From Ochrobactrum chromiisoli (GTDB taxonomy: Bacteria; Pseudomonadota; Alphaproteobacteria; Rhizobiales; Rhizobiaceae), in NCBI RefSeq assembly GCF_026241335.1, contig NZ_JAPHAV010000003.1:124001-188000 (forward strand): a stretch of DNA of 64,000 nt. Direction: 5' to 3'. Shown here in pieces: positions 1-8,756 of this stretch (position 1 is its first letter; each line of letters begins with the position of its first letter). The notes beneath the pieces were generated by a model. The model was not told where the DNA came from. It searched no databases and saw only the letters and a program-made list of their open reading frames with translations. The position numbers were made by a program, and so were the translations under genes.

Positions 1-1728
1 AATCCACGTAACAGCTGGAACTTCTCATCCCGTCGCGCTTATGTCGAAAAGCCGGACGCTTGGATTTGCAAGTTTCAGGATGAAGGCAATGATTTTAAAG
101 AGGCGCAGCGCGTTATCCGCAGGCCCGGTTTTGAGGGCGACATCAAGCTGACCGAAACGCTTGAACTGCCCGGTCTGACAAACCCAACCGTTGTTTATCG
201 CGAAGGTCTGCGCCGCTTCTTCGAGGCTGAATACCGACCAGACGTTTATGAGGCCATACAAGAGGGAGCCGTTCGGGTAGCAACACGCGGTGATTCCGTC
301 ATGCTGAGCCATGACGTGCTGAGCCGCTCGCAATGGGCTGGCCGCGTTCGTTCCCAGAATGGCAATATGGTAGAACTGGATGAAGTCGTGACCATGGAAG
401 CTGGCAAAAGCTACGGCGTCCGCTTCCGTCACTTTGCCTCGGAAAGCGACACGGTTGGCACGTCTGTCGTGCGCGCTGTTGAGACTTATCCGGGCGAAAC
501 CACGCTCCTTTCCATGAAAGGAACAGGCGCGCAGCCAATGGCGCGGGACATCGTTCACTTTGGTGAAATGGGGACCGATAGCTATCAGGTCGTCGTTAGC
601 CAGGTCGAACAGACCGAAGATCAATGTTCAATCATTCGGGCGATTGATGCCTCGCCAATCATCGATACGCTGACCGATGCGGCCGTCATTCCAGCATGGT
701 CATCGCGCGTTGGTGCTGAGATCAATGAAAACATGCTCCAGCCGTCAGCGCCGCGCTTTACGTCGATCACATCGGGCGTCAAAGGTACGGATCGTTCCGG
801 CACCATTACCTATCTGATTGAACCGGGCAGCGGCGGCATTACAGCCACACAGTTTCGTATCGAGCATCGTTTGGGAACGTCCGGCAACTGGACAGTCACC
901 ACAATCCCAGCGGCCAACGGCGGCGGCACGATCTCAGCCTACAGTCAGGGCAATACGATTCAGATACGCGCTCGCGCTCTTTCGTTCACAGGTGCAGCTG
1001 GTCCATATACATCCACAGTCACAATCGTTATCGGATCGGATGACGCGCCGATCCCACAGGCACTTGATGCCAATGCGATCTCAATCACGCCGCTTTTAGG
1101 TGGCGCACTCATTCAGCTTGCCACGGGATCAGATGCTAACACCAAGCGCGTTCAGGTCTATCGCTCGACCGCTTCCGTGTTGGATCGTGAAACCGACGCT
1201 GTAGGTCAGCCTTATAGTGTCAGCGCGCTACAAAGCTTCAGTTTTGCGTTAGGCGATACGACGCGATCAACGCTGATCGTGGGTGGCGCGATGGATAGTG
1301 CTGCTTCTTGGACGCTCGATCCTGACTGGACGATTGCAGGCGGTAAGGCAACGCATGCGGCTGGCACATCTGGCAGCATCGGTCAGGCTTTGTCTCTGAC
1401 GTCCGGCAAATGGTATCGCTTTGGATATTCGGTTGAAAGCCGGTCGGCAGGCTCAATCATGCCACGTTTCAACGGTGGCTCGCCGCGTGCTGGAACGTCT
1501 GTTTCAACGAACGGCCGCAAGCTTGATCGCATTCAGGCTGTCACCGGCAACAACGCCATTCAGTTTGAAGCCAGCACTGCGTTCGACGGCAGTCTTGATG
1601 ACATCGTCGGCTATCTCGAAACCGCTGCCTGCCTTTCGCAAGGCATTCATTACGTCTGGATTGAGCCACAGAACGCAGACGGCGTTCCCGGCCCGATTTC
1701 AGGTCCCTTCACAATCGAAATCGTTTGA
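1..1728 (+). CDS. Phage tail tip / host-specificity protein, 5' partial
   Basis: The frame is open from base 1, so at least 575 C-terminal residues of a larger protein are present; the ATG at 301 is internal. The first part resembles the central region of TipJ/GpJ-type tail tip proteins of rhizobial phages, which sit at the tail end and contact the host. From about residue 250 the chain turns into beta-rich, Ser/Thr/Gly-rich sequence, consistent with fibronectin-III-like repeats, with an inserted jelly-roll-like segment near residues 420-530. It ends 10 bases before the next tail gene, and its stop overlaps that gene's GAGG ribosome site. Assignment to the tail tip is by recognition of the sequence style and by position; host receptor unknown. 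Confidence 0.7.
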   Translation, partial: NPRNSWNFSSRRAYVEKPDAWICKFQDEGNDFKEAQRVIRRPGFEGDIKLTETLELPGLTNPTVVYREGLRRFFEAEYRPDVYEAIQEGAVRVATRGDSVMLSHDVLSRSQWAGRVRSQNGNMVELDEVVTMEAGKSYGVRFRHFASESDTVGTSVVRAVETYPGETTLLSMKGTGAQPMARDIVHFGEMGTDSYQVVVSQVEQTEDQCSIIRAIDASPIIDTLTDAAVIPAWSSRVGAEINENMLQPSAPRFTSITSGVKGTDRSGTITYLIEPGSGGITATQFRIEHRLGTSGNWTVTTIPAANGGGTISAYSQGNTIQIRARALSFTGAAGPYTSTVTIVIGSDDAPIPQALDANAISITPLLGGALIQLATGSDANTKRVQVYRSTASVLDRETDAVGQPYSVSALQSFSFALGDTTRSTLIVGGAMDSAASWTLDPDWTIAGGKATHAAGTSGSIGQALSLTSGKWYRFGYSVESRSAGSIMPRFNGGSPRAGTSVSTNGRKLDRIQAVTGNNAIQFEASTAFDGSLDDIVGYLETAACLSQGIHYVWIEPQNADGVPGPISGPFTIEIV

Positions 1729-1738
1729 GGCTCAGATC

Positions 1739-4426
1739 ATGGCTAATCATGCAGGTGTGACGACAGAAAATATCGACCCAATGACCTTGGCCGACGAGAT
1801 TATCGTCAACCGAGGCAAGCGCACCGGCCGACTGCCCGTTGCCAACTTTTCTCAGCAGCTCGCTTCTGAAGGCATGGTCGCCAGCCTCCTTAGCGAAAAA
1901 GCCACAAAGTCGGAAATCGAGGCGCTGGAAAGCGTCGCCTATGTAAATGCGGCTGTTTACGAAACAGTTGTTGCTGGTCTGGCTGCAACGGCAAACGGTC
2001 AGCAGTTTCAGGTTCAGGAAGGGAAATTCATCGTGCGCTACCGCAATAATGGTGGTGGGGCAGTCGAAGTGCAGCGCTCTTTAAGGCTGGCAGAAAACAG
2101 CGTTCCACCCGACTATGTTGAAAATACTTTCGTGCCTGCCAAAAATCTTGTTGATTCGACCAAAATCAGGCGTGGGCGGTATTTCTCAAACGCAGCCGGG
2201 GGAATTTCTGGTAGTTCTTCCTATCGCTGCACGGGTTTTATACCTGTTAAGCCCGGACAGACTATTGCTGTTAGCGGTGCGATGAATACCACGGCAGTCG
2301 TAGCTTTTCAGTCAGCACAAGATACAGGCGCCGCTTTCACTCATCTTGGCAACACATCTTTCGGACAAGGTGTTTTCGTCATCCCGGCAGACCGGCATTT
2401 TTTGGTTGTAAACGTAACAAATGCGGGACAGGACAATCTTGCATATGACGCGACATTACAGGTCGAGATCGGGAATGCTCCTACGGCCTATGAGCCTTAC
2501 AATTTGATCGTGCGAGACAGCCGGTTGCCCTTACTGCTTCGCCCCGATGAAGTGATTGAACTGATATCGTTCAATATGATTGATTTGGCGAAAGTCAGCT
2601 TTGTTCAGCGATATTCGGCATCAGGTCTGGTGATGGTGAACGACACGTCAGGGATTGCCTCAACAGCGCACATCGCGGTTGAGGAAGGCAAGCTTTATGC
2701 AGTTTCCGGGTCGTTTTACAGCAATGCGAACGGCATGCAGGGCGGCTACTTTGTCGGAAGCGGAACGCAGGCAATTGCTAACATTGTGTTTGGTTCACCG
2801 CCATCTGGTTCAGGACAGTTCTTTCAGGTGCCCACAGGACTAGGTATCACCCACGTTGTGCTCAATTTGTGGAAGGAAGGCCGCGTCAGCAGTTCCACTA
2901 CGCTGGAAGGTAACGTTCAGATGGAACGCGGCGAGATTGCTACCGACTGGCGACCTTATAGCCTGTTCCAGCGTATCAAGCCCGCGCTTATTGATGGCAA
3001 CCCGACCCCAACACCGGGAGGCGGCAGCTTTAATGTATCGGCATGGTATCAGTTTGTGGAAGCCGATGAAGGCAGCTCGCACATCGAGAAGCTGCCGAAA
3101 TTCCGCAAGGCATGGCTGGAAAAGAAAGCTGATTTGTGTGTGGTCAATACCGGCACAAGCCTGACAGCGCGTAGCACGGAACATTGCACTGATCATCCAA
3201 AAGCGCCGCTTCGTCCACCTTTGATGCATTCGCGTAATTTTGCCTCGCACATCTGGGATCGCTTGTGCTGGCAGGGACAGCAATACCGGCGTTATGATGC
3301 GTCTGGTGTTTTTACCGAAACAGGCACTTGGGCGACTTCATTCAATCTCGCTGAATGGGATGATGGTGCTTATCGCCATGGTCTTACCCGCTATTCATCC
3401 GCAGTATCCGCTTCAGTGTCGTTCGGTGTGCCGGTGGGCGCTTGGCAGTATAACTTCATCTATCGAACTGACAGCAAGGGCTGCACCGCATCGGTCACAA
3501 TTGATGCTGGCAATGGCAAAATGCAGGTGTTTGATCAGGCAACACAAAGCTGGATTGAGGCCAACGGTTATTCGTTCTCAATGAATGAACCTGCACCCGT
3601 AACCCGCAACGTTAATTATCCGCATCCTTCGACCGGCACGATCAGTGTCATCAACGTTGCGAGCAAGGGCAATACAACGTATCAAAAGCGCCTCAAAATG
3701 CGTTGCCGTGGTGGAGTTGTCGATAGTCTGGCAGAGGCCAAGATCGTCACGATTGCGCGCACGGGCGGCGGGGAGCGATTGATGTATTGGGGCGTTGAGT
3801 GGTCGCCACGCCAATATATGATCACATACATCAATGCTGCTCGTGGGAGCCATAACACGCAGGCGAACTCGGAGCGAGGTTTGCCGCGCTTTCAGGATAA
3901 CGAGGTCTGGTCGTTTAAACCAGATTTGTTCTTCTCAGAATTGCCGATCACAAACGATGGTGCAGGTGGCAGCGGGCAATATGCTGGAAACTTCTGGTCT
4001 GGCCTAACCGAGAATTTTATCTTCAAATCCAGTTACGAGCTATCTCTCACGGCCAGAGCGACGCACTTCGGTCTTGCACCGGAATTCGCTTTCTTCACCA
4101 CATCTTATGGCTGGAATGGTGGCGGCGTTGCAGACGATGGGCAGTTGAGCTTCTCCATTCAGAATGACGGCACGGCTATGTCGCCACTGGATAAGATGAC
4201 ACAGGCCTATCAGCACGTTGTTGAAAATCATCCCACGGCCGTGATCGTCAACTTGGCGCAACGCTGGACTGATGCTGGTTTTGCAATCTTTGGCGAAATG
4301 CGAACGCCAACTGAAGGAAGCGGAAAGGCCGGTTCCAGCTTCACAAACGATGGCACTCACTGGAACGATACCGGTTCGCGCATTCAGGCCAAGGGGGCGC
4401 TAGCGGTGCTCAACTTCACGAAATAG
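1739..4426 (+). CDS. Phage tail fibre/appendage with C-terminal SGNH-hydrolase-like domain
   Basis: 895 residues. The ATG at 1739 is chosen because GAGG lies 8 bases upstream over the previous stop and the adaptor-like N-terminus starts here; the frame stays open further upstream but overlaps the tail tip gene. Residues ~1-130 look like a tail-fibre adaptor (motif GLAATANGQQF). Two similar beta modules follow, ~135-254 and ~278-407, each ending in a Q-E-G...PY type motif. From ~465 an SGNH hydrolase-like fold is suggested by NTGTSLTA (candidate nucleophile S474), ITND (candidate block III) and DGTHWND near the end (candidate D871/H874 pair), with a ~200-residue insertion. Such domains deacetylate surface polysaccharides. 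Inference: receptor binding plus glycan ester cleavage. No signal or membrane segment. Confidence 0.7.
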   Translation: MANHAGVTTENIDPMTLADEIIVNRGKRTGRLPVANFSQQLASEGMVASLLSEKATKSEIEALESVAYVNAAVYETVVAGLAATANGQQFQVQEGKFIVRYRNNGGGAVEVQRSLRLAENSVPPDYVENTFVPAKNLVDSTKIRRGRYFSNAAGGISGSSSYRCTGFIPVKPGQTIAVSGAMNTTAVVAFQSAQDTGAAFTHLGNTSFGQGVFVIPADRHFLVVNVTNAGQDNLAYDATLQVEIGNAPTAYEPYNLIVRDSRLPLLLRPDEVIELISFNMIDLAKVSFVQRYSASGLVMVNDTSGIASTAHIAVEEGKLYAVSGSFYSNANGMQGGYFVGSGTQAIANIVFGSPPSGSGQFFQVPTGLGITHVVLNLWKEGRVSSSTTLEGNVQMERGEIATDWRPYSLFQRIKPALIDGNPTPTPGGGSFNVSAWYQFVEADEGSSHIEKLPKFRKAWLEKKADLCVVNTGTSLTARSTEHCTDHPKAPLRPPLMHSRNFASHIWDRLCWQGQQYRRYDASGVFTETGTWATSFNLAEWDDGAYRHGLTRYSSAVSASVSFGVPVGAWQYNFIYRTDSKGCTASVTIDAGNGKMQVFDQATQSWIEANGYSFSMNEPAPVTRNVNYPHPSTGTISVINVASKGNTTYQKRLKMRCRGGVVDSLAEAKIVTIARTGGGERLMYWGVEWSPRQYMITYINAARGSHNTQANSERGLPRFQDNEVWSFKPDLFFSELPITNDGAGGSGQYAGNFWSGLTENFIFKSSYELSLTARATHFGLAPEFAFFTTSYGWNGGGVADDGQLSFSIQNDGTAMSPLDKMTQAYQHVVENHPTAVIVNLAQRWTDAGFAIFGEMRTPTEGSGKAGSSFTNDGTHWNDTGSRIQAKGALAVLNFTK

Positions 4427-4472
4427 ACAGAGTTTTGCAATTTGGCTCAACTATTCAAATGAGGAAAGTTGA

Positions 4473-4820
4473 ATGGAACCAGAATTAGGAAGCGTGTGGC
4501 GGCATAAGCGGACAGGGCGTGAATGCCTCGTTGTCCGCAACGTCACCGAGAACTTGGCTTCACGCTGTAAGAATGGCGATAGAGCCTATCTTTGGGGCTG
4601 GGCCGATGCACGTGATGCGTACAATCTGATTGCGCCATACGAGCCGAGAAAGAGCAACGACGATTCGAGCTACATGCGTATTCCTCTAACGGTCGTGATG
4701 GAAAACCATACCGAGCGTTTCGGCGTCATCGTCGTATATCAGGATCAGACCGATAACCGTCTCTGGGCGAGTTACGCTGATGAGTTTCTCGACGGTCGAT
4801 TTGAAAAGTTGAGTGATTAA
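4473..4820 (+). CDS. Hypothetical prophage protein (115 aa)
   Basis: I do not recognise this protein. It is a charged, soluble 115-residue chain rich in W, R and Y, with no signal peptide, transmembrane segment or obvious catalytic motif. The start is supported by GAGGAAAG seven bases upstream of ATG. It lies 46 bases after the tail fibre gene and directly before a hairpin-rich noncoding stretch. A position after the tail fibre often holds a fibre chaperone or a lysis/regulatory gene, but nothing in the sequence selects one of these. Confidence 0.65.
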   Translation: MEPELGSVWRHKRTGRECLVVRNVTENLASRCKNGDRAYLWGWADARDAYNLIAPYEPRKSNDDSSYMRIPLTVVMENHTERFGVIVVYQDQTDNRLWASYADEFLDGRFEKLSD

Positions 4821-4986
4821 GTGCGCGAGGCGTCCGCGCCTCAAGCAAGTAGGGACGGCCACGTTAATTCGTGGCGGCGGGCCATTCCGGCAAGAGCAAC
4901 CCGCCCGACAGTAGATAAGAATAACCGTCGCATCCTATGCCCCGAAGGGCAGAGGCCATGTGGCAGATTCTTGAGATTGAGTCACC
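4821..4986 (+). ncRNA. Hairpin-rich noncoding stretch, possible structured RNA
   Basis: Four stem-loops occur in 166 bases: GAGGCG/CGCCTC with a TCCG loop (4827-4842); GCCACG/CGTGGC with a TTAATT loop (4858-4875); GGCGGG/CCCGCC with an 18-base loop (4876-4905); TGCCC/GGGCA with a CGAA tetraloop (4938-4951). None is followed by a T-run, so they are not ordinary terminators. A GTG-initiated 60-codon frame covers the stretch but its sequence looks like noise. Inference: 5' leader of the methyltransferase mRNA or a separate phage RNA. The start of the methyltransferase also overlaps the stop of a 17-codon ATG frame (4937-4990) as ATGA. Confidence 0.35.
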
Positions 4987-5796
4987 ATGACCTTTCAAAC
5001 TGATTTTACACCTGTTCATCCTGTTTCGCCGCCTGCCGCTTACATCGGCGGCAAGCGCCAGCTCGCCAAGCGCCTTTGCGCTAAGATCGAAAAGACGCCA
5101 CATGCGCTTTATGCTGAACCATTCGTCGGTATGGGCGGTGTGTTCTTCAGGCGAACATCATCGCCACGCGCTGAATTCATCAATGATCGCTCAAGAGACG
5201 TCACCAACCTGTTTCGCATACTCCAGCGCCACTACCCGCAGCTTATGGACACATTACGCTTCCAAATCACCAGCCGGACCGACTTTGATCGACTAACGTC
5301 AACTGATCCTGACACACTAACCGATCTGGAGCGTGCAGCCCGATTCCTTTATCTCCAGCGCCTAACGTTTGGCGGCAAGGTCGCTGGCCGTTCATTCGGC
5401 ATCAACTATAGCGGCTCTTCGCGTTTCAACCTGAATACACTTGCAGCCGTGCTGCAGGACGTTCATGAGCGGCTTGCATCAGTCGTCATAGAGAACTTGA
5501 ATTGGCCCGACTTCATTGATCGCTACGACCGTCCGGAAACCTTATTCTATCTCGATCCACCATATTGGGGAACGGAAGACAGCTATGGCAAAGAGATGTT
5601 CAGTCGGGATCAGTTTGAAGTGCTGGCCGAGCGTCTCGGTCGTATCAAAGGTCGCTTCATATTTTCGATCAACGATGTTCCTGAAATCCGCTCGATCTTC
5701 TCGTCATTCGACATTGAGGATGTTTCGCTGACGTACAGTGTGGCAGGCGGAAAGGGAAAGCCGGTGCGTGAGTTGATAATTTCGGGAGGGGCTTAA
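4987..5796 (+). CDS. D12-class DNA N6-adenine methyltransferase
   Basis: 269 residues, the usual size for Dam-like D12 enzymes, which transfer a methyl group from S-adenosylmethionine to the N6 of adenine in DNA. Visible motifs are YIGGKRQL near residue 19, the AdoMet-binding AEPFVGMGG near residue 43 and the catalytic DPPYW near residue 190, in the D12 order. No restriction endonuclease lies beside it, so it is an orphan phage methylase; recognition sequence unknown. Such genes may protect phage DNA from host restriction or affect phage gene timing. The stop codon lies inside a GGGGCTT/AAGCCCC hairpin. Confidence 0.88.
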   Translation: MTFQTDFTPVHPVSPPAAYIGGKRQLAKRLCAKIEKTPHALYAEPFVGMGGVFFRRTSSPRAEFINDRSRDVTNLFRILQRHYPQLMDTLRFQITSRTDFDRLTSTDPDTLTDLERAARFLYLQRLTFGGKVAGRSFGINYSGSSRFNLNTLAAVLQDVHERLASVVIENLNWPDFIDRYDRPETLFYLDPPYWGTEDSYGKEMFSRDQFEVLAERLGRIKGRFIFSINDVPEIRSIFSSFDIEDVSLTYSVAGGKGKPVRELIISGGA

Positions 5797-5812
5797 AGCC
5801 CCTTCTATATGT
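5788..5812 (+). terminator. Hairpin overlapping the methyltransferase stop
   Basis: GGGGCTT (5788-5794) pairs with AAGCCCC (5796-5802) and is followed by TTCTATATGT. The TAA stop (5794-5796) is in the loop side of the stem. The T-tract is weak, so termination may be partial. It separates the phage late-type genes from the cargo gene. Confidence 0.5.
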
Positions 5813-5829
5813 ATTCGGCTCCGACATTC

Positions 5830-5857
5830 TATAGTGTAAGCATTGTCCAATCGGACA
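5830..5857 (+). promoter_or_regulatory. Possible promoter and operator of the cargo gene
   Basis: TATAGT (5830-5835) is a fair -10 box without a good -35 match. An expected start near 5842 falls at the inverted repeat TGTCC-AATC-GGACA (5844-5857). A strong G-rich ribosome site precedes the ATG at 5888. Separate transcription of the cargo gene in the lysogen is an inference. Confidence 0.3.
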
Positions 5858-5887
5858 TTTAACAAAGGTCTTAACCGGGGGGGGAAT

Positions 5888-6838
5888 ATGGAAAATTCAA
5901 AAGCTAACATCGCCGAGTTTTTCGCGACATTGAAGGTTGGATTTAACAAATGTCTTTGGCCGACACTCGCATGCAAAGAGAAAGCAATAAACGCGCATTC
6001 GGTACAAAATGCTTCATCTCTCGGATTGATAGCTGAAAACAATCATGTTGCCGCACTTGGGATGAGGGTAAACGGCGGTGAGCCTAACTGTGTATTTTCA
6101 AAAGTCGGGCGCAACAAAGCGTCAACTTTTGCCGGTTTTTGTTCGCACCACGATACAAAACTCTTCAAGCCAATCGATACGAAGCCTCTGTCACTCTTAG
6201 ACCAAGAGCAGCTTTTCCTCATAGCCTATCGATCAGTAACACGCGAGCTACACACCGCTATGGAAAGTGCAATGCGTTTGCAAACCGCACTTGATAAGAA
6301 GATTAAAGCCGGTGCTGTCCCCAAAGATGCACCGTCCCCGATTATGACACTCGCAACTCAACATATGCTAAAGGCTTGGGGTGTGTGGAAACATCGATAC
6401 GAATTCTACGATCAGCTGCTTTTTAAGAATCAACTTAACAAAATTCTTCATTCAAGTTTTATGATTGAAGAGCGTAAGCCAGTTTTAGCATCTTCTGCGT
6501 TCTTTTCGGTCGATAATAAACCATGGGGAAAGCGCTTTTCAGCCGTAACTCTAAACGTTATCCCAATATCAGTATCCCAGACCGCAGTCGTGGTGAGTTA
6601 TCCCAAAGAGCAGTCAGGCGCAGCACGTAAGTATGTCTCACCAGTTTTTACGAAACAGGGCGATGAACGTCTTCTAGCCTTGTCGCATCTGCTTGTTGAT
6701 CGTGCGGAGAATTTTTTTGTTTTGCCGTCACACGTAGACGGATGGACAGCCGAAAAGCGAACAACAATCGAATCTCAATACTTGGGTACCATTCTTAACA
6801 AGCCCGCAACCCTATCACCTGCTTTGATGCTTTTTTAA
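5888..6838 (+). CDS. Cys/His-rich prophage cargo protein of unknown function
   Basis: 316 residues from the ATG at 5888, which follows a run of eight G bases; the TTG at 5843 is a less likely start. I cannot name the family. Visible: a Cys/His cluster in the first 90 residues (C22, C29, H37 in NAHSVQ, H53, C68, C85, H87/H88, D89 in GFCSHHD) that could form a zinc site or an HNH-like/treble-clef fold; the rest looks mixed alpha/beta and soluble. Base composition and codon use are visibly AT-richer than in the flanking tail and host genes. It is the last prophage gene before the host junction, where lysogenic conversion, exclusion or defence genes are common. A defence role is inference only. 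Confidence 0.6.
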   Translation: MENSKANIAEFFATLKVGFNKCLWPTLACKEKAINAHSVQNASSLGLIAENNHVAALGMRVNGGEPNCVFSKVGRNKASTFAGFCSHHDTKLFKPIDTKPLSLLDQEQLFLIAYRSVTRELHTAMESAMRLQTALDKKIKAGAVPKDAPSPIMTLATQHMLKAWGVWKHRYEFYDQLLFKNQLNKILHSSFMIEERKPVLASSAFFSVDNKPWGKRFSAVTLNVIPISVSQTAVVVSYPKEQSGAARKYVSPVFTKQGDERLLALSHLLVDRAENFFVLPSHVDGWTAEKRTTIESQYLGTILNKPATLSPALMLF

Positions 6839-6935
6839 GATTTCGCCCACATCCGGCGTTAGCGAATTCATCTTTTTGTCCAGAAGCTAACGCCCAACTG
6901 TCCAGAAGCTGCCGCCGCGCCACAGTCTGCGCGTG
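6839..6935. other. Prophage/host junction region (attachment site side)
   Basis: Seen: an 11-base direct repeat GTCCAGAAGCT (6879-6889 and 6900-6910) and an inverted repeat GGCGTTAGC (6855-6863) / GCTAACGCC (6886-6894). The comEC-like frame opens after the TAA at 6888-6890, and recognisable ComEC sequence starts near 6933. Repeats at such a place are compatible with integrase/excisionase sites, but the core sequence cannot be identified without the left junction. Confidence 0.5.
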
Positions 6936-8756
6936 CCTTCTGGGCCAGTGAGACCGGGCAATTATGATTTTGCATTCCATGCTTATTTTGCCGGCATTGG
7001 AGCGAATGGCTTTTTTCTTGGAACTCCAAAAATTGCAGATGTTTTGGAGCCGAAGGGGCTTAAGGCGACGATTGCAACTGAAATTGCCAGATTGCGTGTC
7101 CATGTTTCCGAGAGGATTGTGGAGGTGCTTTCAGGGGAAGATGGCAGTGTTGCTGCCGCACTGATCGCAGGCGAGCGGGCAGGGATCAGTGATGAAACCA
7201 ACAATGATCTGCGCAAGGCGGGGCTTGCGCATATTCTGTCAATTTCTGGCCTGCATATGGTGCTGGCAGCCGGTGTGGTCATGATGTCTCTTCGTGCATT
7301 ATTCGCGCTTTTTCCCGCATTCAGCGCACGTTATGCTGTCAAGAAATATGCTGCATTTCTCTCGCTTTTGAGTTGCACTTTTTATCTCGCTATGTCGGGC
7401 GCAGATGTTGCGGCACAGCGCAGCTACTTGATGATTGTCGTCATGCTTTGTGCGCTGTTGGCTGATCGTGCGGCGATCAGTATGCGAAATCTGGCTATTG
7501 CGGCCGTGGCGATGATTGCCATTTCTCCGCATGAAATTCTGGGGCCGAGCTTTCAGATGTCGTTTTCGGCGACTGCGGGGCTGATTGCTGCATTTGCCTG
7601 GTGGAGCGACCGAAAAATGCGCAAGCAATCGGCAGGTAATGATCTGCGCTCATCACCCCGTGGAACGATGAAAAAAATACTTTTTCCGACATTTGCGACG
7701 GGGGCGACATCCATTGTTGCCGGTGTAGCGAGCGGTATATTTGCGGCCTATCATTTTAACAACACGGCGCCCTTTGGACTTGTTGGAAACGTGCTGGCGC
7801 TGCCAGTCATTTCAATACTTGTGATGCCGTTTGCAGTGTTAAGCTTGATATTGATGCCGTTGCAACTTGATTGGCTGCCATTGCAGGTCATGGGATTTGG
7901 CATCTTGCTGGTGAGATATATTGCGAGCTTTGTGGCCAGCTTTTCACCCGATGGTAATCCGGGTGTCATGCCGGTGATGACGCTGATCCTGTGGACTGTC
8001 GCGCTTGTCATATCCGTCACATTCACCACAAGATTGCGATTGTTGGCATTGCCTTTCGTTATGGCAGGTCTTGTGGTGTTTATGCGCTCGCCCATGCCCG
8101 ATATCCTCATTAGCGAGAACGCGAAATTCGTGACGGTACGATTGCGCGATGGAAGTTTCGCAGTCAACCGCAGCAGACCTCCGCAATTTACGGCGCAGAA
8201 CTGGCAGACGGCCTATCTGATTGATGATTTTATCCCACCGCAGAGTGCGATGAAACGAAGTGCTGGCGCGCGCGAGGATGGCTTTATCTGTGAGGATGGG
8301 CTTTGCACCCTGTCACTTCGGGACGGGCGCATATTTGCCTATACCGCTCAGGAAGAGATGCACGAGATTGCCTGTAATGTCGGGGACGTTGTGGTTCTGG
8401 CGATTGCAGGCAAAGACTTAAGCTGCACGCGTTCGTCTACGCTGGTGATTGGCCGACAGGAACTGGCCTTGAAAGGAACGCTCGAAATAAGGCTGGGAGA
8501 GGAAATGCAGCGCCATCAGGCGGTTTCTCCTGATCCAGCGGTCCGCGACAATCATCAGATTTATCGCTTTAGCGTTGCGGAGCAGCGCAAGGATGCAGCC
8601 TATGCCGATTATTTAAATTTTTCAGTCGGTGCGCCAACGCGCCCCTGGCAGCTTCATCGTCTCTATTCGCGCGCCGCACGCGGTCAGCCTGAGCGCGAAT
8701 ATAAGAAGAGAGCGAAAGTATTTACTATCGGGGTGGAAACAGAAGAAACGCTCTAA
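6933..8756 (+). CDS. comEC: ComEC/Rec2 competence channel, N-terminally truncated by the prophage
   Basis: ComEC forms the inner-membrane channel for single-stranded DNA uptake. The frame keeps the end of the N-terminal OB-like domain (PSGPVRPGNYDF, GIGANGFFLG) and the competence domain, including SISGLHM near residue 105 and a long run of hydrophobic helices to about residue 390. The first membrane helices and most of the OB-like domain, perhaps 150-200 residues, are missing; the prophage ends just before. GTG 6933 is the first start in frame and has no good ribosome site. The C-terminal soluble part shows no metallo-beta-lactamase HxHxDH motif. Function is probably lost in the lysogen; excision would restore the gene. 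Confidence 0.8.
   Translation: MPSGPVRPGNYDFAFHAYFAGIGANGFFLGTPKIADVLEPKGLKATIATEIARLRVHVSERIVEVLSGEDGSVAAALIAGERAGISDETNNDLRKAGLAHILSISGLHMVLAAGVVMMSLRALFALFPAFSARYAVKKYAAFLSLLSCTFYLAMSGADVAAQRSYLMIVVMLCALLADRAAISMRNLAIAAVAMIAISPHEILGPSFQMSFSATAGLIAAFAWWSDRKMRKQSAGNDLRSSPRGTMKKILFPTFATGATSIVAGVASGIFAAYHFNNTAPFGLVGNVLALPVISILVMPFAVLSLILMPLQLDWLPLQVMGFGILLVRYIASFVASFSPDGNPGVMPVMTLILWTVALVISVTFTTRLRLLALPFVMAGLVVFMRSPMPDILISENAKFVTVRLRDGSFAVNRSRPPQFTAQNWQTAYLIDDFIPPQSAMKRSAGAREDGFICEDGLCTLSLRDGRIFAYTAQEEMHEIACNVGDVVVLAIAGKDLSCTRSSTLVIGRQELALKGTLEIRLGEEMQRHQAVSPDPAVRDNHQIYRFSVAEQRKDAAYADYLNFSVGAPTRPWQLHRLYSRAARGQPEREYKKRAKVFTIGVETEETL

What the first reader, a model, noticed from the sequence alone, without database searches (positions are those of the whole stretch)
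6839..8756. Prophage inserted inside comEC: possible active lysogeny
The comEC frame lacks its N-terminal part and begins directly after the phage genes, with an in-frame stop at 6888-6890. In Listeria, a prophage in comK excises to restore competence (established); a competence channel gene as an attachment site in a Brucellaceae genome would be a parallel case. Reversible switching here is inference.
Basis: partly seen in the sequence, partly recalled or inferred. Interest (0 to 1): 0.75.

Follow-up and report, generated by a model that had tools for sequence, protein, structure and literature searches.

The report
Mu-like prophage splits comEC gene
A jumping (Mu-like) phage has landed inside the gene for this bacterium's DNA-uptake channel and cut it in two, most likely a lasting gene loss rather than a reversible phage switch.

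Summary
The comEC frame in the window (6925-8756) is the 3' part of a split gene. Its missing 5' part (223 codons) lies 37.7 kb upstream on the same contig. Of 35 genomes of the genus, 28 relatives have one unbroken comEC match, and none of the 34 others carries this phage's transposase in full. The insert is a prophage, C34:93187-130924, 37,738 bp.

Active lysogeny is not supported. The insert is a Mu-like transposable phage: MuA, MuB, GemA, Mor, Mu portal. Its ends are those of Rhizobium phage RR1-B and, one base apart on the right, RcapMu. A 5-bp target duplication, GTCTG, flanks it. No tyrosine-integrase or large-serine-recombinase match lies on the contig. Relatives sit elsewhere: 0 of 22 flanks match comEC, dprA or comM. 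Mu insertions are described as extremely stable (PMC3562280 passages).

Best reading: a chance transposition that knocked out comEC. The genome keeps an RcGTA-like cluster, dprA and a comM-like gene, so the cell may have lost reception of gene-transfer-agent DNA. That is inference.

The parts
1..6924 (+). right-hand 6.9 kb of the Mu-like prophage (whole element C34:93187-130924; the window starts at C34:124001)
   Evidence: ends
1..1728 (+). 3' part of a 1,114-codon tail protein (C34:122384-125728)
   Evidence: 55% identity to the RcapMu region annotated putative tail fiber protein
1421..4426 (+). mechanical ORF, perhaps a tail spike-like protein; the true start is probably downstream of 1728
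   Evidence: no Pfam or PHROG family for 1790-4423; only a 39-aa match to RcapMu; role inferred from position
4987..5796 (+). D12-class adenine DNA methyltransferase near the phage right end
   Evidence: PF02086 E 9.4e-25, phrog_56; 60% identical to the last gene of phage RR1-B
5888..6838 (+). accessory ORF next to the right end, low G+C, no named family
   Evidence: G+C about 0.45; no Pfam, PHROG or PADLOC match; 63% identical to a hypothetical protein on Aminobacter plasmid pAA04, weaker relatives often annotated SEC-C domain-containing
6877..6886 (+). inner right-end site TGTCCAGAAG (R2-like transposase site); the in-frame TAA 6888-6890 follows
   Evidence: RcapMu has attR2 annotated at a corresponding place
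6899..6908 (+). outer right-end site TGTCCAGAAG (R1-like)
   Evidence: two copies in the 64-kb window, 0.10 expected; an inverted copy at the left end, L003:9203-9212
6916..6924 (+). right terminus of the prophage, CGCGCCACA
   Evidence: same in phage RR1-B, one base different in RcapMu; same in G346, G429 and G432
6925..6929 (.). right copy of the 5-bp target-site duplication GTCTG (left copy L003:9182-9186 = C34:93182-93186)
6925..8756 (+). 3' piece of comEC, channel domain included, no internal stop
   Evidence: 5' piece at L003:8518-9186

Best explanation
A 37.7-kb Mu-like transposable phage, with most structural genes like those of RcapMu and early genes close to Rhizobium phage RR1-B, inserted by MuA/MuB-type transposition after codon 223 of comEC and duplicated 5 bp of target (GTCTG). 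Shown: the split gene, the ends, the duplication, the transposase genes, and other sites of relatives. Inferred: comEC is inactive, because the N-terminal piece ends 11 codons into the phage and the channel piece lacks its native start; the site was hit by chance; and the loss is practically permanent, because a Mu-type phage multiplies by replicative copying and not by precise excision. Further inference: the lineage can no longer import DNA through ComEC, in natural transformation or from gene transfer agents, while GTA genes, dprA and a comM-like gene remain.
For: 5' piece 37.7 kb away on the same contig. MuA: phrog_310 E 7.5e-140 and PF09299; MuB: phrog_296 E 3.1e-47; GemA, Mor, Portal_Mu. 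Base 1 of the left end is the first base of homology in RR1-B, G174, G420, G346 and two copies in G114, with different host DNA before it. TGTCCAGAAG occurs in the window and in L003 only at the phage ends (L004 was not tested). RcapMu has attL1, attR1 and attR2 annotated at corresponding places. The two GTCTG copies map to one site in the relatives' comEC, 23 of 29. Three other members have a right-end-like sequence followed by the 5 bases that precede their left end: GCCGG in G346, GTCCC in G429 and GTAGC in G432. 0 of 22 flanks of relatives match comEC, dprA or comM; the own flank, as control, matches comEC. 19 tyrosine-integrase and 3 serine-recombinase matches in the genome, none on contig C34.
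Against: Loss of function is not measured; a shortened protein could start at GTG 6933. One genome of the species is held, so fixation or reversal in the population cannot be seen. The right ends of the three other members were found with the help of the expected duplication, so they are not an independent count; in G420 and in 10 of 12 IMG/VR records no right end with the expected duplication was found, and the 9-mer CGCGCYACA alone was rarer than its backward control (15 against 32 matches). Some of the 22 flanks are only 127 to about 1,000 bp, so a com gene further out would be missed. Nothing seen here establishes natural competence in this genus; comF was not tested.
Confidence: 0.92

Rival explanations
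1. Active lysogeny: the prophage uses comEC as an attachment site and excises precisely to restore the channel on demand, as with Listeria comK.
For: The insert is in a competence gene, the borders are clean, and both comEC pieces are open without further decay.
Against: No integrase match on the contig; Mu-type transposase and ends; only 5 bp repeated; tested flanks of relatives lie elsewhere. Mu junctions stay in place through lytic growth and Mu insertions are described as extremely stable (PMC3562280 passages).
Confidence: 0.03
2. Chance insertion, then kept by selection (compatible with the best explanation): carriers that lost ComEC could no longer be cured of the phage by incoming DNA, so this copy persisted (intragenomic conflict, Croucher et al. 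2016).
For: Insertions in competence genes recur in many species and a model gives them an advantage (PMC4774983 passages). The host keeps dprA, a comM-like gene and an RcGTA-like cluster.
Against: A single case; 0 of 22 relatives' flanks match the three com genes tested; comEC is described as rarely hit (PMC12955456 passages). Random insertion alone explains it.
Confidence: 0.15
3. Assembly artefact that joined phage and comEC pieces.
For: Draft genome of 52 contigs.
Against: Both junctions lie inside one 291,631-bp contig, show the same 5 bp and true phage ends, and the host DNA on both outer sides is collinear with the relative L005.
Confidence: 0.02

Closest known systems
Rhodobacter phage RcapMu (JN190960)
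   Same: Mu-like phage with a broadly similar gene order from repressor to tail; MuA 49-50% identical; TGTAGGGGGG left end and CGCGCTACA right end; attL1, attR1, attR2 annotated at corresponding places. Described as having a flexible noncontractile tail (PMC8601537 passages).
   Different: No RcapMu match to our right-end methyltransferase at E 1e-5; portal and MuF are separate genes there; another host.
Rhizobium phage RR1-B (JF974315)
   Same: MuA 74% identical, same ends, adenine methyltransferase as last gene.
   Different: Annotated with a tail sheath protein; our tail region matches RcapMu instead.
Listeria prophage in comK (active lysogeny)
   Same: A phage interrupts a competence gene.
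   Different: That one is described as excising to activate competence genes (Rabinovich 2012, not read; seen as cited, with its title, in PMC12955456). Here the mover is a transposase and the site is not shared by relatives.
comEC interruptions in Piscirickettsia salmonis and by a mefA cassette in pneumococcus
   Same: comEC broken by mobile DNA (PMC12955456 passages; PMC4774983 passages).
   Different: Transposable elements or a resistance cassette there; a whole Mu-like phage here.

Membership tests
Mu-like transposable phages (saltoviruses) | DDE-type transposase MuA with MuB-type ATPase | tested here: met
   phrog_310, PF09299, phrog_296; the catalytic residues were not tested one by one
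Mu-like transposable phages (saltoviruses) | 5-bp target-site duplication | tested here: met
   GTCTG on both sides, one site in relatives in 23 of 29 compared
Mu-like transposable phages (saltoviruses) | TG...CA ends with inverted transposase-binding sites | tested here: met
   that the sites bind transposase is inferred
Mu-like transposable phages (saltoviruses) | insertion at many unrelated sites | tested here: met
   for relatives: 22 flanks, alike only in one pair that is the same place, 0 in the three com genes; not testable for this very phage, seen once
Mu-like transposable phages (saltoviruses) | replicative transposition and virions with host DNA at the ends | not testable with these tools
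   needs induction of the phage
Active lysogeny (Listeria comK type) | site-specific integrase in the element | tested here: not met
   no PF00589 or PF07508 match on contig C34
Active lysogeny (Listeria comK type) | same attachment site used by related phages | tested here: not met
   0 of 22 relatives' flanks match comEC
Active lysogeny (Listeria comK type) | regulated precise excision restores the gene | not testable with these tools
   no reads or second isolate held
RcGTA-like gene transfer agent (elsewhere in the genome) | clustered HK97-type portal, protease, capsid, tail genes and megatron | tested here: met
   L164: TIGR01537, TIGR01543, TIGR01554, TIGR02126, TIGR02218, TIGR02219, NF048004; the terminase-position frame had no NCBIfam match

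The most novel reading that the evidence does not exclude
A transposable phage has turned a gene-transfer-agent-carrying alphaproteobacterium into a one-way donor: it may still make GTA particles but can no longer import their DNA through ComEC, and this loss of reception protects the phage from being cured. If Mu-like insertions that hit comEC persist for this reason, a randomly inserting phage gains by selection after landing what site-specific phages gain by choosing com genes as attachment sites.
Probability: 0.12. Interest if true: 0.6.

Novelty: new member of a known kind. Interest (0 to 1): 0.33.

Why it matters
Phage insertions in competence genes are used as evidence for conflict between mobile elements and transformation; the recurrent examples in the passages seen involve integrases (PMC4774983). 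comEC is described as rarely hit (PMC12955456 passages). Here a phage of a randomly inserting kind hit comEC in a genome that still carries a GTA cluster. ComEC, ComF and DprA are stated to be required to acquire RcGTA-delivered DNA (PMC10883770 passages), so the case suggests a natural test of whether cells that carry GTA genes but cannot receive persist. In the listings (20 of 82 and 10 of 36 hits, judged by titles and abstract starts) I saw no report of a Mu-like phage in comEC; this is not exhaustive.

Tried and rejected
Rejected: a long attachment core. Between 93001-93800 and 130600-131100 the only shared exact word of 9 or more bases was a 10-mer with both copies inside the phage. Rejected: an integrase-driven element (family scans of part of the element's frames). 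Rejected: a short comEC as the normal form in the genus.

Weak or negative results: the operator-like palindrome near the left end had 2 overlapping matches against 0.41 expected, reached by 23 of 200 shuffles. No right end with the expected duplication was found in G420 or in 10 of 12 IMG/VR records, and CGCGCYACA matched 15 times against 32 for its backward control. The left end in G039 was not recognised. The accessory ORF had only two weak phage matches, Listeria phages, 36% over 40% of its length. Paper search for precise excision listed mostly eukaryotic transposons; one search (Ochrobactrum, Mu-like) gave one paper, on Burkholderia phages; one search (Brucella, natural transformation, comEC) listed nothing on transformation of Brucella by title or abstract start.

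Rows dropped: of 66 MuA loci in viral contigs I examined 62, leaving out L068, L093, L100 and L121; 19 of 62 had a left-end motif and 17 of those had at least 60 bp of host DNA. Two of the 19 (L073, L117) are doubtful ends, by sequence or by distance. Of 34 relatives with a comEC match I compared the 29 with loci.

Full report
The window is contig C34:124001-188000 of a 4.65-Mb draft genome with 52 contigs. That is correct. The frame 6933-8756 holds the Pfam Competence domain and an in-frame TAA lies at 6888-6890.

The missing part is present. The N-terminal 247 residues of a relative's ComEC match C34:92518-93213, 78% identical, E 1.6e-111; the only other match in the genome is the window piece. 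Upstream, on the other strand, lies a gene that I read as gltX from its translation (L003:6882-8303). The 5' frame keeps 223 host codons, then runs 11 codons into the phage and stops. In the uninterrupted relative L005 (832 aa) Pfam places Competence at 301-586 and DUF4131, slightly below its cut-off, at 104-252. The break therefore lies in the DUF4131 region, before the channel domain. The 5' piece alone gave no Pfam match.

The insert runs from C34:93187 to C34:130924, 37,738 bp. Homology to the left ends of RR1-B, G174 (Phyllobacterium leguminum), G420, G346 and two copies in G114 begins exactly at its first base, TGTAGGGGGG, with different host DNA before it in each. The G039 copy was not recognised. 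The right border CGCGCCACA is shared with RR1-B and differs in one base from RcapMu. The 10-mer TGTCCAGAAG occurs twice in the 64-kb window, both within 50 bp of the right border (0.10 expected), and once, inverted, 16 bp from the left border in the 20-kb stretch L003; L004 was not tested. RcapMu has three repeats annotated as potentially associated with transposase recognition in a corresponding arrangement.

The genes are those of a Mu-like phage. Found: MuA (phrog_310 E 7.5e-140, Mu-transpos_C), MuB-like (phrog_296), an S24/HTH repressor, a ParB-like protein, GemA, Mor, terminase, Mu portal joined to MuF, protease, major head protein and tape measure. MuA is 81% identical to that of the P. 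leguminum prophage, 74% to RR1-B, 50% to RcapMu. Most structural proteins match RcapMu. In six-frame searches of the genome, 19 tyrosine-integrase matches and 3 serine-recombinase matches were found, none on C34.

GTCTG lies on both sides of the element. When the two comEC pieces are compared separately with 29 relatives, the last bases of the two copies fall on the same base of the relative's gene in 23 of 29; in six the best 3' alignment starts further in. In three other members a right-end-like sequence is followed by the five bases that precede the left end: GCCGG in G346, GTCCC in G429 and GTAGC in G432. These right ends were sought with the help of that duplication, so they illustrate rather than prove it. 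None was found in G420 or in the other ten of twelve IMG/VR records, and the 9-mer searched for was not more frequent than its backward control (15 against 32 matches).

Relatives do not share the target. Among family genomes 6 of 394 carry a MuA of this kind at E <= 1e-50, own included. The five other left flanks recognised there lie in or next to a luciferase-like monooxygenase, a phage integrase, an alcohol dehydrogenase, a DEAD helicase and a frame without Pfam match. In the fourth and third of these the gene appears to start just beyond the junction, so the phage is beside it. With 17 IMG/VR flanks these make 22, one pair being the same place. None matches comEC, dprA or comM at E <= 1e-3, while the own flank, the positive control, matches comEC. 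Several flanks are short, so com genes further out would be missed. Within the genus only the own genome has this MuA in full; G007 has two weak pieces, 27-35% identical.

Mechanism. In Mu the phage ends attack target strands 5 bp apart, Mu moves without leaving its site, and insertions are described as extremely stable with rare reversion (PMC3562280, passages). P. aeruginosa transposable phages insert largely at random with some hotspots (PMC5977238, passages), and the 5-bp duplication is called characteristic of Mu and Mu-like phages (PMC11406979, passages). So the best reading is a chance, practically permanent knock-out of comEC. That function is lost is inferred from the split, not measured.

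What the loss would mean. The genome has dprA, a comM-like gene, and an RcGTA-like cluster on C11 with portal, protease, capsid, tail proteins and the megatron baseplate protein; comF was not tested. ComEC, ComF and DprA are stated to be required to acquire RcGTA-delivered DNA, and comEC co-evolves with GTA genes in alphaproteobacteria (PMC10883770, passages; also PMC6473078, passages). A cell with the GTA cluster but no ComEC would be a potential donor that cannot receive. This is the most interesting reading left open, and nothing here tests it.

Literature. Mobile elements in competence genes are well known (PMC4774983, passages), comEC is said to be rarely the target (PMC12955456, passages), and the listings of two searches for comEC with Mu-like phage terms showed no such case (20 of 82 and 10 of 36 hits seen, by title and abstract start).

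Kind and novelty: a new member of a known kind, a Mu-like prophage in an uncommon target gene.

Noticed in passing
window 5888-6838: Low-G+C accessory ORF at the phage right end. Closest relative (63%) is a hypothetical protein on conjugative plasmid pAA04 of Aminobacter; many weaker plasmid relatives are annotated SEC-C domain-containing. No PADLOC match; two weak phage matches.
   Followed up: partly
L004:3276-6170: One 964-aa protein joins Mu portal, MuF and a C-terminal PBECR2 nuclease-like domain, whereas RcapMu has portal and MuF as separate genes.
   Followed up: no
L164 (G000:C11:879000-898000): RcGTA-like head-tail cluster with a 1,268-aa megatron gene, in a genome whose comEC is split.
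   Followed up: partly
L020 (G015) and L032 (G023): comEC in two overlapping pieces with a TGA (G015) or with one in-frame TAG (G023) in two other genomes of the genus, both of at least 99% completeness; real decay or sequencing error was not resolved.
   Followed up: no
L003:9519-9540: Palindrome-like GTCGGACATTTTGTCCGA upstream of the phage left-side genes, with related half-sites nearby; possible repressor operators, not significant in the shuffle test.
   Followed up: partly
L149 (G429): A second right-end-like sequence lies inside the outer one, 68 bp apart, as if the right end had been duplicated in that prophage.
   Followed up: no
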